Source: JAGLHV01 sp023132075 [NCBI: bacterium]
GTDB taxonomy: Bacteria > CBDUZB01 > JAGLHV01
NCBI GenBank assembly: GCA_023132075.1
Contig: JAGLYT010000071.1
Location: 1 to 7,789 of the forward strand
DNA length: 7,789 nt
Reading direction: 5' to 3'
Shown here: one piece after another, positions 1-4,643 of the stretch
Position numbering within the stretch: position 1 is the first letter of the stretch
Layout of the letters: each line of letters opens with the position of its first letter
The notes under the pieces: model-generated
Database searches by the model: none
Seen by the model: only the letters and a program-made list of their open reading frames with translations
What the model was told of the DNA's origin: nothing
Made by a program: the position numbers and the translations under genes

Positions 1-56
1 CAAATTAAATGTTCATAAGCTATCAACCATAGTTCTGAAAAAGTTATCTATATATC

Positions 57-125
57 ACCGAACGCTTGAACTCCCCTGCTTTTTACGCGAAGCGGAAAAA
101 TGTCAGGTGCAACGCATTGTTATAG
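57..125 (-). other. attC: attC-like integron recombination site
   Basis: This 69-bp imperfect inverted repeat lies at the 3' end of the small secreted-protein gene. Read on the minus strand, it opens with an R''-like box CTATAAC (119-125) that contains the gene's TAA stop. It closes with an R'-like box GTTCGGT (57-63). The two arms match when folded: AAC at the base, then CCTG paired with CAGG, then TTTTT with AAAAA, then CGC with GCG around a TTC tip. Mismatches and bulges between these blocks are typical of attC sites, which integron integrases recognise as folded single strands. The inner arms resemble the aadA-type attC as I remember it (AACAAT.CGTT on one side, TTCAAGCGTT on the other). 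The outer boxes fit RYYYAAC/GTTRRRY only partly. Assignment is by architecture and memory of known sites; no covariance search was possible. Confidence 0.72.
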
Positions 126-515
126 GTTGTAATTTTTTTTAATTTGTTCTGCCCATTTATTTGCTTCCCCATTTTCCACGTAGATTATTTGCATATGAGG
201 ATTTTTTTCGATTCCATTAATTATTGATTTTAGAGTTTTAGTGTTCAGCGTGTAATCAGAAAAAATGAATACATAAATGGCACTGCCGCTCCAAGCTACT
301 TCTTCAATTTTGGGAAAAAGTTCTTTTAAGGTAACATTTTTGACTTCTTCTGATTCGATACCTGTATGAAGACTATACTTAAAACCAGTTATTATTCTCG
401 AGCCAATATTATCTTCTTTTATTATAGCTTTGCATGAAATGGCGACACTTCTTAATTCGGCAAATGAAGGTAAAGTATAGAGGATAAAAAAAAGAAACAG
501 TATTAATTTTTTCAT
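120..515 (-). CDS. Small secreted protein, probable integron cassette gene
   Basis: This encodes 131 residues that I do not recognise. Residues 1-19 form a clear Sec signal peptide: MKK, a run of Leu/Phe/Ile, then a PSFA cleavage motif before Glu20. The mature protein is therefore about 112 residues and exported. It holds one cysteine (about residue 28), alternating hydrophobic strands such as the stretch AIYVFIFSDY, and a lysine-rich C-terminus. This suggests a small alpha/beta fold with no visible catalytic motif. An AGGAG site (522-526) six bases before the ATG supports the start. The stop codon sits inside the attC-like site, and the ribosome site overlaps the GTTATAG boundary, so coding sequence nearly fills the putative cassette. 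Its own promoter-like sequence lies about 65-90 bp upstream. Integron cassettes often carry orphan genes of this kind, so lack of recognition is expected. Confidence 0.8.
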   Translation of the reverse strand: MKKLILFLFFILYTLPSFAELRSVAISCKAIIKEDNIGSRIITGFKYSLHTGIESEEVKNVTLKELFPKIEEVAWSGSAIYVFIFSDYTLNTKTLKSIINGIEKNPHMQIIYVENGEANKWAEQIKKNYNL

Positions 516-524
516 TTTATTCTC

Positions 525-531
525 CTATAAC
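525..531 (-). other. Putative cassette 5' boundary (attI or secondary insertion site)
   Basis: The minus strand reads GTTATAG here, immediately before the gene's ribosome site. This is the exact reverse complement of the CTATAAC box at 119-125. In integron cassettes, the six bases after the crossover G at the 5' end pair with the R'' box of the same cassette's attC in the excised circle. If both boundaries are right, the cassette runs from 530 down to 63, 468 bp. The sequence just upstream (on the minus strand, TATATAAT) does not look like the end of another attC, so this would be the first cassette position or a secondary insertion site. Confidence 0.55.
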
Positions 532-578
532 ATTATATATTATCTATTTACTCTATTTTCAGAAAACTACACTATAGT

Positions 579-608
579 ATTGTAGAAAAAAAGGGGGGTT
601 AGTGTCAA
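579..608 (-). promoter_or_regulatory. Sigma70-type promoter for the cassette gene (Pc-like)
   Basis: The minus strand carries TTGACA (603-608), an 18-bp spacer and TACAAT (579-584), five of six bases matching TATAAT. The predicted start is near 572, giving an untranslated leader of roughly 55 nt before the ATG at 515. It lies about 50 bp upstream of the putative cassette boundary, outside the cassette. That is where an integron's cassette promoter would sit. The spacer holds C6 and T7 runs. Seen directly; activity is inferred. Confidence 0.65.
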
Positions 609-626
609 GTTTTTTTGGGCAGCAGG

Positions 627-664
627 CAATAGGGTAGACAATAGGGGCAATAGGGGACGGTTTT
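627..664. repeat. CAATAGGG(G) short repeat cluster ending in ACGGTTTT
   Basis: Three near-identical units, CAATAGGG (627-634), CAATAGGGG (639-647) and CAATAGGGG (648-656), run into ACGGTTTT. The last two are directly adjacent. The GGGGACGGTT phrase recalls dispersed intergenic repeats in several anaerobe genomes, some near REP-associated Y1 transposases. That link is from memory only. No transposase lies nearby, and no reverse-oriented ACCGTCCCC partner is visible. Confidence 0.5.
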
Positions 665-691
665 AAGATAATAAGTTAATGTTTTTTTCTT

Positions 692-727
692 ACACAGTTA
701 TACTACTTATAAGTAGTATAACTGTGT
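692..727. repeat. Perfect 36-bp palindrome
   Basis: Two 18-bp arms, ACACAGTTATACTACTTA and its exact reverse complement, abut with no spacer. On the minus strand the palindrome overlaps TTGACA (725-730), with a weak TAGTAT 19 bp further on, so it could be an operator over a promoter reading toward the cassette gene. It could also form a cruciform or an RNA hairpin. On the minus strand it is followed by AAGAAAAAAAC rather than T residues, so it is not a standard intrinsic terminator in that direction. Confidence 0.7.
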
Positions 728-746
728 CAATATAAAACTCTTTAAT

Positions 747-779: not shown

Positions 780-799
780 CCTTTGAGAAATTCTAAAGG

Positions 800-961
800 C
801 TACTTATCGTTTTTTTCCACGAATTTCTTAATCTCTTCAACATTCTCCAGTATCAGCTTGGCCTTCCTTAATCCGAATTGAAAAGGGTATTTATCCTCTT
901 CATCATTCTTAATGACCAACATGGGATTTCCTTTGAATTCCGACTCCGATACGATAGACAT
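800..961 (-). CDS. Conserved 53-residue protein, paralogue A
   Basis: This small gene encodes 53 residues starting MSIVSESEFKGNPMLVIKN. It follows a near-ideal GGAGGAG ribosome site with ATG seven to eight bases on. A second copy at 4169-4330 has 47 of 53 residues identical. Of about 25 differing codons, 18 are synonymous and one is the stop (TAG against TAA), so selection has kept the protein. The pattern is two or three short strands (SESEFKG, NPMLVIKN, YPFQFGLRKAKLIL), then an amphipathic helix (ENVEEIKKFVEKN). This resembles the small strand-strand-strand-helix layout of PC4-like single-strand nucleic-acid-binding proteins, but that is a guess from shape only. It is transcribed alone from an operator-bearing promoter and ends at a strong hairpin. 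Function unknown; that it is a real gene is well supported. Confidence 0.88.
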   Translation of the reverse strand: MSIVSESEFKGNPMLVIKNDEEDKYPFQFGLRKAKLILENVEEIKKFVEKNDK

Positions 962-1007
962 AATTTACTCCTCCTTTTTAATTTGTTAACATATAATTTT
1001 ATTAAGC

Positions 1008-1612: not shown

Positions 1613-2206
1613 TTATTTTTTCGTTCCTTTATTAATTTTTAAGAAAATTATACCGGAGAAAATCGCTCCTAAGCCGTCGGCAAACATATCTTTTTGGGCA
1701 TCCCAGATATCGCCCTGACTTCCTAAAAAGGCTATTCCTGCAGTAGGATTGGCGGTTACTGCATAGAGCCATTCAATAATTTCATATATTGCTGCAACTG
1801 TAAAGATAGACAATATACCGAATAACGCTGTAAGCAATCTTGAATTTACCAGATTTTTCCGGTTTAGATACTCTGCAACAGGAAAGGCATAAAATCCCAC
1901 GCTGAAATGAGCAATTCTATCAAAATGATTCCTTTCAAACCCAAAAAAATCAGTTATCCAATCAAAAGGTACTCTTTCAAAAGTAAAATGCCCACCCAGT
2001 GTATGTAAAAATATCAAAACACTCATCATAATGTATGACAGGTTTGAAAATTGAAATCTTCTATGGGTTACAGCCAGGAATAAAACTATCCCTACTATAG
2101 GCAGATTTTCCGCAAACCACACATCTCTATCATAGGGGTTTATTGCCAGGGCAATAAAAAATATCACATAGGTGAGCAGTAAATAATGCGGTAATTTTAA
2201 CTTCAT
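1613..2206 (-). CDS. yjdF: DUF2238/YjdF-family membrane protein
   Basis: This 197-residue integral membrane protein is typical in length for the family. Recognisable motifs are NPYDRDVWFAENLP (23-36), HTLGGHFTFE (68-77), RNHFDRIAHFSVGF (92-105), YEIIEW (141-146) and GSQGDIWDAQKDMFADGLGA (162-181). Hydrophobic spans lie near 7-22, 35-47, 56-70, 99-112, 123-145 and 175-190, giving about six membrane helices. The charged and aromatic motifs (His, Asp, Glu near membrane faces) suggest a metal- or substrate-handling site, but no reaction is established for YjdF. GAGGAG lies nine bases before the ATG. It begins 39 bp below the hydrogenase stop with no terminator between them, so cotranscription is likely. 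The family assignment is firm; any role with the hydrogenase is unsupported. Confidence 0.88.
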   Translation of the reverse strand: MKLKLPHYLLLTYVIFFIALAINPYDRDVWFAENLPIVGIVLFLAVTHRRFQFSNLSYIMMSVLIFLHTLGGHFTFERVPFDWITDFFGFERNHFDRIAHFSVGFYAFPVAEYLNRKNLVNSRLLTALFGILSIFTVAAIYEIIEWLYAVTANPTAGIAFLGSQGDIWDAQKDMFADGLGAIFSGIIFLKINKGTKK

Positions 2207-2245
2207 AAAAATTAGCTCCTCAAAAATTTAATTTTCTCTTTTAAT

Positions 2246-4039
2246 TTATCCCTTGGTTATTCTTAACTTATCTTTATAAGGACAGGAAAACTCGTCTCCT
2301 CCGTAAAGAGGACGATCATAGTATTGTGTGTGCAGTAACTTTCGGGCTTTATCACTTAAAGGTTCACCTAAATACTCTTTATATAACTGTTGAATATACG
2401 GATTCTTATGCGATTGGCGAACAGTCACCTCTTTTTCTTCCCGGTAAATTGCTTTAGCTCTTTTTTCCCTTATTTCCAATCCGCCATAAGGTTGTCCACC
2501 GCCGCCGACACATCCTCCGGGACAAGCCATTACTTCTATAAAATGATAGGTCAATTTATTTTTTCTTTTTCCCTCTGCTACCCGGTCTAAGACTTCTTTT
2601 ACATTACCTAAACCGTGAGCGACAGCAACTCTTATTTTTTTACTACCTATCTCAACTTCTGCTTCTTTTACTCCTTGTAAGCCGCGCACGGCTTCAAAAT
2701 CAATATTGGACAACTCTTTTTCGGTAATAAATTCATAAGCGGTTCTCAAAGCCGCTTCCATTACTCCTCCGGTAGCACCAAAGATTAAACCTGCTCCCGA
2801 ATAAATACCTAAAGGAGCATCCGCTTTTCCATCGGGGAGATTAGCCAAATCAATTCCCGCTTGTTTAATAACTCTGGCAAATTCCCGGGTGGTAATAGTA
2901 ACATCTACATCCTGAACCCCCGAGGAAAACATATCATAACAGCGAAGTATTTCGTATTTTTTTGCCGTACAGGGCATAATGGAAACCATAAATATTTTTT
3001 CTTTGGGGATTTTCATTTTTTCCGCCCAGTATGTTTTTACCATTACCCCCAACATTTGATGGGGAGATTTTGCCGAAGAGAAATTATCAATAAACTCAGG
3101 ACAAAATTTTTCTAAATAATCAACCCAGGCCGGACAACAACTGGTAATAAGGGGAAGTCTGTCTTTTTCTGTTTTATATCTTTTTACAAACTCCGATGCC
3201 TCTTCCATAATAGTTAAATCCGCACCAAAATTAGTGTCAAACACATAGTCAACACCTAATAATTTCAACGCAGTATAAATTTTTTTCGTAACGGAAGTAC
3301 CCACAGGCAAACCAAATTCTTCACCTAAAGCAACCCTTACTGAGGGAGCAATCTGGGCAACGACAACCTTTTCCGGATTATTAAGTGCTTCCCATACCTC
3401 CTGGGTATGTTCTTCTTCATAAATGGCACCTGTAGGACAATACGAGGTACATTGTCCACATTTAACACAAGGACTGTGAAGTAAATCCGGTTTTGCCGCC
3501 GCATAAACTTTGGAACCTCTTTCCATAATCGCTAATGCATTTACTTTTTGAATTTCACTACAAATATAAACACACCTTTCGCAGGCAATACATTTTTCGG
3601 AATTAATGTTTAAGGCTACAGAGGTATTATCCCGATGTTCCGTTTTTATATGGTTTGGAAAACGCAACTCTTCTCTAAGACCTAACTGAATGGCTAAATC
3701 CTGTAATTCGCAATTGCCATTTTTGATACAAATAAGACAATCTGTAGGATGGGAGGAAAGGATTAGTTCTAAATTCATCCGCCGGGCTTTAAGCACCCTC
3801 TGGGTATGAGTAAATATTTCCATCCCTTCTTCTACCGGAGTGGAACAAGCACATTCCAGGTGATCTCTTCCTTTTATTTCTACCAGACAAATGCGGCAAA
3901 CTCCATTTACTTTAAGATCCGGATGATAACACAAAGTAGGAATATTTATCCCTATTTTTTTAGCCGCGTCTAAAATGGTACTTTTTTCAGAAATATTCAG
4001 ATTCTGACTGTCAATGGTTAAACCTACCTCTTTATTCAT
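2246..4039 (-). CDS. hydA: [FeFe]-hydrogenase, multi-cluster catalytic subunit (HydA/HndD type)
   Basis: This 597-residue cytoplasmic enzyme reversibly reduces protons to H2. The N-terminal NuoG-like [2Fe-2S] domain uses C37, C48, C51 and C65. A His-ligated [4Fe-4S] site uses H97, C101, C104 and C110. Two ferredoxin-type [4Fe-4S] clusters use C150/C153/C156 with C201, and C191/C194/C197 with C160. The H-cluster motifs are intact: TSCCPAW (299-305), MPCTAKKYE (355-363) and EVMACPGGCVGGGGQP (502-517). Ligands are C302, C357, C506 and C510, and C301 is the proton-relay cysteine. The C-terminal small-subunit-like segment follows, around residues 540-575. Length matches HndD and clostridial CpI, without the extra C-terminal [2Fe-2S] domain of Thermotoga HydA. 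I chose ATG 4039 because AGGAAG lies seven bases upstream; an ATG six codons earlier would place that site inside the gene. No HydB/HydC or HydEFG genes are present, so the electron partner is unknown: NAD(P)H and bifurcation, or ferredoxin. Confidence 0.96.
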   Translation of the reverse strand: MNKEVGLTIDSQNLNISEKSTILDAAKKIGINIPTLCYHPDLKVNGVCRICLVEIKGRDHLECACSTPVEEGMEIFTHTQRVLKARRMNLELILSSHPTDCLICIKNGNCELQDLAIQLGLREELRFPNHIKTEHRDNTSVALNINSEKCIACERCVYICSEIQKVNALAIMERGSKVYAAAKPDLLHSPCVKCGQCTSYCPTGAIYEEEHTQEVWEALNNPEKVVVAQIAPSVRVALGEEFGLPVGTSVTKKIYTALKLLGVDYVFDTNFGADLTIMEEASEFVKRYKTEKDRLPLITSCCPAWVDYLEKFCPEFIDNFSSAKSPHQMLGVMVKTYWAEKMKIPKEKIFMVSIMPCTAKKYEILRCYDMFSSGVQDVDVTITTREFARVIKQAGIDLANLPDGKADAPLGIYSGAGLIFGATGGVMEAALRTAYEFITEKELSNIDFEAVRGLQGVKEAEVEIGSKKIRVAVAHGLGNVKEVLDRVAEGKRKNKLTYHFIEVMACPGGCVGGGGQPYGGLEIREKRAKAIYREEKEVTVRQSHKNPYIQQLYKEYLGEPLSDKARKLLHTQYYDRPLYGGDEFSCPYKDKLRITKG

Positions 4040-4134: not shown

Positions 4135-4168
4135 ATTATTTCTCCGCCAAGAAACTGAGATATAAAAA

Positions 4169-4330
4169 TTATTTATCGTTTTTTTCTACGAATTTCTTAA
4201 TGCTTTCAATATTCTCTAAAATCAGTTTCGCTTTTCTTAGACCGAATTGAAAAGGAAATCTGTCCTCTTCAAAGTTTTTGATGACTAATATGGGATTCCC
4301 TTTGAATTCCGATTCCGAGACGATAGACAT
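4169..4330 (-). CDS. Conserved 53-residue protein, paralogue B
   Basis: This is the second copy of the 53-residue gene, starting MSIVSESEFKGNPILVIKN. It differs from the copy at 800-961 at six residues: M14I, D20F, K24R, Y25F, V41I and E43S. DNA identity is about 81% over the coding sequence, mostly synonymous change. The identical leader AAGGAGGAGTAAATT precedes both start codons, while flanking DNA beyond that is unrelated. The duplicated unit as now visible is therefore ribosome site plus gene. The buried-looking core (FQFGLRKAKLILEN) is fully conserved, and changes cluster in the 20-25 loop and on the helix face. It lies 129 bp above hydA in the same direction. No strong promoter was found, so the source of its transcript is unclear. 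Function unknown, as for paralogue A. Confidence 0.87.
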   Translation of the reverse strand: MSIVSESEFKGNPILVIKNFEEDRFPFQFGLRKAKLILENIESIKKFVEKNDK

Positions 4331-4643
4331 AATTTACTCCTCCTTGTTAAATAAAGTAAAACATCTACATCTAAAAATTTCGAAACTTCAATGCCGGAAT
4401 TGATTAAGACTAATAATTCAAATCTTGATGCTGCTAATTCCATTCCCGCATTGGATAAAATATAACATTTTTATAAGTCAGAAGAATATGAGCCTATTTT
4501 AAAAAAACCACTCTTACCAAAAAATAAATATTAAGCACAAAAACTTCATAGTTATAAACATTTATTCCCTGAACCAACATCATTAAATAAACCCGTATAA
4601 AAATTTGCCGCTTAAATATATCTATTACTAATGATAATACTTG
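4331..4643. other. Gene-free AT-rich interval
   Basis: I see no convincing gene in these 313 bp. On the plus strand one frame beginning at ATG 4391 reads 24 codons to TAA. It continues through two further open stretches in the same frame, each ended by TAA (4532-4534 and 4598-4600). This could be a decayed gene or chance in AT-rich DNA. On the minus strand an open frame crosses 4455-4340 but has no ribosome site and runs into paralogue B in another frame. The interval should contain the transcript end of the 58-residue gene and the start of the paralogue B transcript, but no strong hairpin or promoter stands out. Confidence 0.5.

What the first reader, a model, noticed from the sequence alone, without database searches (positions are those of the whole stretch)
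57..531. Integron-type gene cassette with both boundaries, but no integrase
The minus strand shows, in order: a promoter, GTTATAG directly before a ribosome site, a small secreted-protein gene, CTATAAC overlapping its stop codon, and a 69-bp imperfect inverted repeat ending AGCGTTCGGT. The 5' GTTATAG and 3' CTATAAC are exact complements, as expected for R' and R'' of one excisable cassette, giving a 468-bp unit. No integrase gene is within 7 kb on the upstream side. This could be the edge of an integrase-less attC cluster, a cassette at a secondary site, or a chromosomal integron that lost intI.
Basis: partly seen in the sequence, partly recalled or inferred. Interest (0 to 1): 0.66.

Follow-up and report, generated by a model that had tools for sequence, protein, structure and literature searches.

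The report
Many integron docks, no integrase gene

Summary
A covariance model trained only on attCs of another species scores it 37.3 bits (E 1.8e-5). No integron integrase was detected in this draft genome or two congeners.

The ~88 bp before the cassette (TTGACA-18-TACAAT promoter plus ...GATAATATATAATG|TT) is a dispersed element: 3 copies in this genome, 10 in a congener, all breaking off at the same crossover (one has A|TT). The first ORFs behind 12 of 13 docks are mutually unrelated. R'' fits its own cassette start at 61 of 64 variable positions (shuffles: mean 32, maximum 52). The window's dock is syntenic with one in the congener that holds a different gene.

Best reading: a distributed integron, with many promoter-attI docks, one on a plasmid-like contig, loaded by an integrase that acts, or acted, in trans. 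Cassettes and integrase-less arrays are known kinds; the dispersed dock is an unusual variant. Draft MAGs cannot prove intI absent.

The parts
63..530 (-). integrated gene cassette, crossover to crossover (468 bp)
   Evidence: G531|T530 and G63|T62; start GTTATAG and R'' CTATAAC exactly complementary
120..515 (-). cassette ORF, 131 aa, signal-peptide-like N-terminus (by eye), no recognised family
   Evidence: no hit in Pfam, PADLOC, NCBIfam, or plasmids by tblastn
57..125 (-). attC site (R'' 125-119, R' 63-57, CGCTTCGCG tip)
   Evidence: held-out covariance model R1: 37.3 bits, E 1.8e-5; DNA similarity to two other attC regions of G002
528..615 (-). dock element core (promoter plus attI-like site), copy 1 of 13; crossover at G531|T530
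   Evidence: BLAST and profile R2: 3 copies in G000, 10 in G002; alignments
603..608 (-). -35 box TTGACA
   Evidence: sequence; best consensus pair scores 10-12 of 12 in 12 of 13 copies (no chance control)
579..584 (-). -10 box TACAAT, 18-nt spacer
   Evidence: sequence
531..555 (-). attI-like tail ending ...GATAATATATAATG|
   Evidence: 97% mean pairwise identity over the last 5 nt before the junction in 13 copies; 20 of the 32 invariant alignment columns lie in the last 32 positions (two copies were entered without their first part)
1..62 (-). sequence right of the attC crossover, to the contig end; next cassette or right flank, undecided
   Evidence: window is the whole contig
649..688 (-). 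short dispersed repeat (GTCCCC-containing, REP-like by eye) upstream of the dock
   Evidence: further partial copies in G000 and G002

Best explanation
The window holds one unit of a distributed integron. The 88-bp element is a cassette promoter (Pc) joined to an attI-type docking site. A circular cassette is inserted at the G|TT at its end, in the orientation that lets Pc express the cassette gene. The genus carries many such docks (13 found in two species, one on a contig with plasmid-type genes), none beside a detected intI gene, so the integrase must act, or must have acted until recently, in trans. Shown: repeated dock, common junction, attC sites, R''/start complementarity, different genes at related docks, no intI detected. 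Inferred: that the element is recognised as attI by an IntI, that Pc is active, that the integrase worked in trans rather than being lost from each place, and how the docks were copied.
For: 13 copies (G000: C359 = window, C201, C373; G002: C50, C157 x3, C48, C26, C159, C5, C121 x2) found by BLAST and by a profile. Over 290 genomes the profile matched this genus and, weakly and in the promoter part only, one other (23.6 bits, stricter filters). The copies break off at one crossover: 97% mean identity in the 5 bases before it, 23-46% in bases 4-8 after it, and no shared DNA starting at the junction among the 13. First ORFs behind 12 of 13 docks are unrelated (best non-self blastp E 0.078). R'' matches its own cassette start at 61 of 64 variable positions in 16 cassettes; 0 of 100,000 shuffles reach that. 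C373 (G000), C48 and C159 (G002) share about 460 bp up to the junction (86-95% identical) yet have different first genes (190, 129, 318 aa). The window's dock and C50's dock follow the same gene neighbourhood, but the window's cassette protein has no match in G002. An 86-aa gene is second behind dock C48 and third behind dock C159.
Against: All three genomes are drafts (G000 86.7% complete in 389 contigs; G001 94%; G002 97%), and 5 of 13 docks lie within 1 kb of a contig end in the downstream direction, so an intI could be unbinned. An attC was not found behind 4 of 13 docks (C157a, C26, C5, C121a); C5 has a group II intron there, C121a ends about 1 kb on. C26 has A|TT at the junction. After the junction, bases 9-13 rise again to 63% identity (A-rich), then 29-40%. 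In C201 and C121 a dock lies downstream of another cassette's attC, so not every copy is an independent platform. G001 has the promoter part without the attI-like tail, in front of another gene, so part of the conservation may be a native promoter family. No recombination was measured.
Confidence: 0.77

Rival explanations
1. Ordinary integron seen through a bad assembly: a normal intI-attI-array exists in each species and intI was lost in binning; the dispersed copies are duplicated pieces of it. (The rivals overlap with each other and with the best explanation, so their odds do not add to one.)
For: Fragmented MAGs; drafts are known to overstate integrase-less arrays (passage of PMC9024848).
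Against: The syntenic dock in C50 has about 20 kb of assembled upstream sequence without any PF00589 recombinase; none of the 10 dock contigs carries a detected intI; both dock-bearing species lack one.
Confidence: 0.35
2. Secondary-site (attG-type) insertion: cassettes landed in a dispersed repeat that happens to hold a good G|TT, not in a true attI.
For: Secondary-site insertion seems to occur here: contig C21 of G002 has a single cassette at a G|TT without the dock. A promoter-only relative exists in G001.
Against: The 13 copies with the tail all break off at the crossover and share no DNA beyond it; the part nearest the junction is the most conserved.
Confidence: 0.12
3. The docks spread as attI-tailed ('delta-attI-type') cassettes: segments bounded by an attC crossover on the left and the attI crossover on the right that are excised and reinserted as units.
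For: This layout is seen in C201 (attC, whose R' reads ATTAAGC, then a truncated cassette X, then the dock) and C121 (attC, two ORFs, dock). Such cassettes are functional with IntI1 (abstract of PMC12901181).
Against: I saw no crossover-like sequence at the left ends of the other copies (by eye); C48/C373/C159 share 460 bp upstream, more like copies of a plasmid or island.
Confidence: 0.25
4. A recombinase other than IntI (XerC/XerD, or the 174-aa plasmid-type catalytic domain on C159) moves these cassettes.
For: These are the only tyrosine recombinases detected; the dock tail resembles part of a dif site (consensus recalled, not tested).
Against: By eye the two arms would be closer together than in known dif sites (recalled); attC recombination is attributed to the IntI-specific extra domain (passages of PMC9668308 and PMC9024848).
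Confidence: 0.06

Closest known systems
[quoted passage not shown]
   Same: attC-bearing cassettes without a linked intI; proposed origins are off-target insertion by an IntI elsewhere, loss of intI, or rearrangement (passage of PMC8618304).
   Different: Here arrays or single genes mostly follow a conserved promoter-attI-like element present in many copies; CALINs are defined by attC only, and attI sites outside class 1 are poorly described and not detected by IntegronFinder (passage of PMC9024848).
[quoted passage not shown]
   Same: A second attI heads an integrase-less array in the same prophage (passages of PMC9892861).
   Different: Two copies with a full intI present; here 13 copies in two species and no intI detected.
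Delta-attI-type gene cassettes of mobile integrons
   Same: attI-derived sites inside arrays, in place of attC (abstract of PMC12901181).
   Different: Known from resistance arrays of mobile integrons with IntI1; here in an uncultured lineage, with a promoter, dispersed over many loci.
Secondary-site (attG) cassette insertions
   Same: Cassettes inserted away from attI and attC (attG as described in a passage of PMC12444791; the original paper not seen).
   Different: attG sites are described as consensus sequences spread over many loci; here ~88 bp including a promoter is conserved.

Membership tests
Integron gene cassette | attC with R''/R', hairpin arms | tested here: met
   held-out model 37.3 bits; folding energy alone unremarkable
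Integron gene cassette | R'' complementary to the cassette's own start (R' of the circle) | tested here: met
   7 of 7 bases in the window; 61 of 64 variable positions in 16 cassettes
Integron gene cassette | excisable as a circle by IntI | not testable with these tools
   needs a recombination assay
Complete integron | intI gene | tested here: not met
   no TIGR02249 match above cut-off 265 in 3 genomes (best stretch 94.5 bits; best whole protein, XerD, 146.5); PF00589 finds two recombinases per genome; drafts, so absence is provisional
Complete integron | attI site with crossover at G|TT beside the first cassette | tested here: met
   13 aligned copies break off at one crossover, 12 with G|TT and one with A|TT; recognition by IntI not testable
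Complete integron | Pc promoter directed into the array | tested here: inconclusive
   -35/-10 match in 12 of 13 copies, no chance control; activity not measured
CALIN | two or more attC without a linked intI | tested here: inconclusive
   window contig has one attC before its end; C50 has five and C159 two attC matches without intI
attI-headed integrase-less array (Shewanella M16-3 type) | an attI copy in front of an intI-less array | tested here: met
   13 dock copies, none with a detected intI on its contig; first attC found behind 9 of 13 by one test or another

The most novel reading that the evidence does not exclude
This genus runs a working integron without any integrase gene in cis: a dozen dispersed promoter-attI docks, on chromosome and plasmid, exchange cassettes (several of them defence genes) through a recombinase supplied in trans, possibly not an IntI at all.
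Probability: 0.22. Interest if true: 0.85.

Novelty: new variant of a known kind. Interest (0 to 1): 0.6.

Why it matters
Integrons are thought of as one integrase beside one attI. A genome with many promoter-attI docks and no linked integrase would mean that cassette capture can be spread over a genome and its plasmids, so that many cassettes, not one, stand first behind a promoter. It also suggests a way to find attI sites that current software does not detect, by comparing what stands in front of unrelated first cassettes, and a testable account of how some integrase-less arrays arise.

Tried and rejected
Folding energy of the attC alone: not different from shuffles. A hand-made attC scan gave hits in coding sequence as high as the window's site, so I built a covariance model instead. 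Rfam: two matches in the window, both far below their gathering scores, none relevant. Dock 21-mer in viral contigs: no match. Cassette protein: no homologue in plasmids; one 24%-identity match (E 4.5e-4) among the other 40 of 41 genomes, inside an 802-aa frame. AlphaFold without an alignment gave mean pLDDT 52.6; no fold search was made on it. The idea that the C201 dock with its cassettes had inserted into cassette X was dropped: X is also present, longer, at the right end of that array and is truncated at the left. A search for the orthologous stretch of the window locus in G001, to see the state without a dock, found none. An XerC/XerD-dif reading was considered and set low without a test. 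Literature: one search was useless (the term matched 'attitude'); 'multiple attI' with 'integron' gave no paper; searches gave listings from which I read passages of five papers (PMC8618304, PMC9892861, PMC9668308, PMC12444791, PMC9024848) and the abstract of one (PMC12901181). None of what I saw describes many dispersed attI copies without intI.

Full report
Observation. The window is one whole contig (C359, 7,789 bp) of a 1.87-Mb draft genome, G000, 86.7% complete in 389 contigs. Crossover to crossover is 468 bp. The protein has no recognised family.

Is the attC real? Folding energy alone says nothing. I built a covariance model from 8 attC sites of a congener (G002) only. It scores the held-out window site 37.3 bits, E 1.8e-5 over 105,655 bases. 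As a control, 77 of the 79 loci that come from other organisms (L032 and L053 were not given; 849,762 bases) gave 7 matches at E<=10, two of them above 30 bits: 39.1 bits in L048, where two more matches lie on the same strand and a true array is possible, and 34 bits in L031. Genome-wide at E<=1 the model finds 3 sites in G000 (54.8, 37.3, 27.9 bits), 17 in G002 (8 of them training sites) and 1 in G001 at E 0.61, which I do not count as real (only the best 150 first-look candidates per genome were scored, so these are lower bounds).

The dock. The 165 bp in front of the cassette, used as a query, matched many places in G000 and G002. Alignment shows a core of about 88 bp: TTGACA, 15-18 nt, a TATAAT-like box, then roughly GTGTAGTTTTGTGAAAATAGAGTAACCAGATAATATATAATG|TTA (12 of 13 copies have a recognisable -35/-10 pair, C5 does not). 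A profile of it finds 3 copies in G000 (C359, C201, C373), 10 in G002 (C50, three on C157, C48, C26, C159, C5, two on C121) and one in G001 that lacks the attI-like tail. In 290 genomes, with stricter filters, only these three genomes and, weakly, the promoter part in G046 (23.6 bits) matched at E<=1e-4. The 13 sequences built the profile, so their scores are by construction; the evidence is the BLAST and their common end.

The 13 copies break off at the same crossover (12 with G|TT, C26 with A|TT). In an ungapped alignment from the junction, mean pairwise identity is 97% over the last five bases before it; after it the bases TTA/G stay similar, bases 4-8 fall to 23-46%, bases 9-13 rise to 63% (A-rich), and the rest is 29-40%. 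Beyond the junction lie unrelated genes: among the first ORFs behind 12 docks (C5 has no ORF of 60 aa or more) the best non-self blastp match has E 0.078, and no DNA match among the 13 starts at the junction (the two C121 copies overlap each other's stretch).

Cassettes behind the docks. For 16 cassettes whose start and R'' could both be read by eye (14 behind docks or later in dock-headed arrays, one each on C21 and C155), R'' matches its own start at 61 of 64 variable positions; re-paired at random the mean is 32, the maximum of 100,000 shuffles 52. In four of the 16 the R'' core reads AAT, not AAC. These 16 were chosen because both ends were visible, cassettes without a recognisable attC were left out, and for C157c the R'' was recognised partly by its fit, which favours the result slightly. 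Of the 13 docks, the first attC is supported by the covariance model for 6 (C359, C50, C157b, C48, C159, C121b; those of C50, C157b and C159 were training sites), by the hand scan and an exact R'' for C201, by R'' at a contig end for C373, by R'' alone for C157c, and not found for 4 (C157a, C26, C5, C121a). In C5 a group II intron lies behind the dock.

Related docks, different cargo. The window's dock lies after the FmdB-like (zinc ribbon) and 53-aa genes, as does the dock of G002 contig C50, where several other genes, by eye toxin-antitoxin-like among them, intervene. The window's cassette protein has no match in G002. Docks C373 (G000), C48 and C159 (G002) share about 460 bp up to the junction, 95% (C373/C48) and 86% (C159 with each), and then carry genes of 190, 129 and 318 aa. 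An 86-aa gene is second behind C48 and third behind C159. C159 bears ParA-like and TraD-like genes, both below the NCBIfam cut-offs, so 'plasmid-like' is a description, not an identification.

Cargo. First genes behind docks include a PADLOC candidate defence protein PDC-S54 (C201, E 1.1e-128), a type II methyltransferase followed by an MvaI/BcnI-family endonuclease (C157b), a protein with deaminase and HATPase_c_4 matches (C26) and a pyridoxamine-phosphate-oxidase-like protein (C121b). The first genes of C373, C50 and C157c had no Pfam match at E<=0.01; those of C157a and C121a were not searched.

The integrase. TIGR02249 gave no match above its cut-off of 265 bits in G000, G001 or G002 (best stretch 94.5; the XerD of G000 as a whole protein 146.5). 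PF00589 at E<=10 found two recombinases in each of the three genomes: in G000 XerD and XerC, both above NCBIfam cut-offs; in G002 one full-length protein and a 174-aa catalytic-domain-only protein on C159, below all cut-offs. I did not classify those of G001 and the full-length one of G002 further. The C50 dock has about 20 kb of upstream contig without any. Because the genomes are drafts this is absence of detection.

Interpretation. Steps shown: attC cassettes; a repeated promoter-attI-like element ending at the crossover; different genes at related and at syntenic docks; no detected intI. Steps inferred: that an integrase recognises the element, that the promoter works, that the integrase acts or acted in trans, and how docks were copied. 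Two docks (C201, C121) lie inside arrays, downstream of another attC, the layout of 'delta-attI-type' cassettes (abstract of PMC12901181). Eight copies share a longer upstream block of about 150-190 bp, three of these 460 bp; C5 has parts of both blocks with a gap between; C359 and C50 share 107 bp; C201 and C157b have essentially the core only with the others (C157b also shares short stretches further up). More than one way of copying is likely.

Known and new. Integrase-less attC clusters are common (passages of PMC8618304, PMC9024848, PMC9668308, PMC12444791); a Shewanella prophage has a complete integron and an integrase-less array each with its own attI (passages of PMC9892861). I saw no report of many dispersed promoter-attI copies without intI in searches; the library holds only open-licence papers, and I read passages, not whole papers. 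I rate it a new variant of a known kind.

Noticed in passing
window 794-981 and 4163-4350: Two copies (82% identical over 188 bp) of a 53-aa gene with its upstream region; G002 has a copy with the same protein sequence as the first.
   Followed up: no
window 681-738: A 29-nt inverted repeat (86%) with ATACTACTTATAAGTAGTAT at its centre; in G002 a similar palindrome stands before a gene that looks AbiEii-like by eye.
   Followed up: no
L132 5859-6878 (G000:C201) and L191 1000-2019 (G002:C155): REP-associated tyrosine transposase-like genes (first: PF01797 above cut-off, NCBIfam just below; second judged by its similar sequence) close to attC sites; GTCCCC-type short repeats are dispersed in the genus.
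   Followed up: partly
L188 (G002:C21), about 1840-3120 of the reverse strand: A single cassette (370-aa ORF) at a G|TT without a dock: a probable secondary-site insertion.
   Followed up: partly
L195 1560-1628 (G001:C107): The promoter half of the dock, without the attI-like tail, in front of an ORF that looks TonB-receptor-like by eye.
   Followed up: partly
L048 1724-4883: Three attC-like matches on one strand in a Sulfurospirillum MAG contig (20.4, 39.1, 26.6 bits).
   Followed up: no
L138 150-393 (G002:C5): Group II intron behind a dock (Rfam RF02005, 99.3 bits).
   Followed up: no
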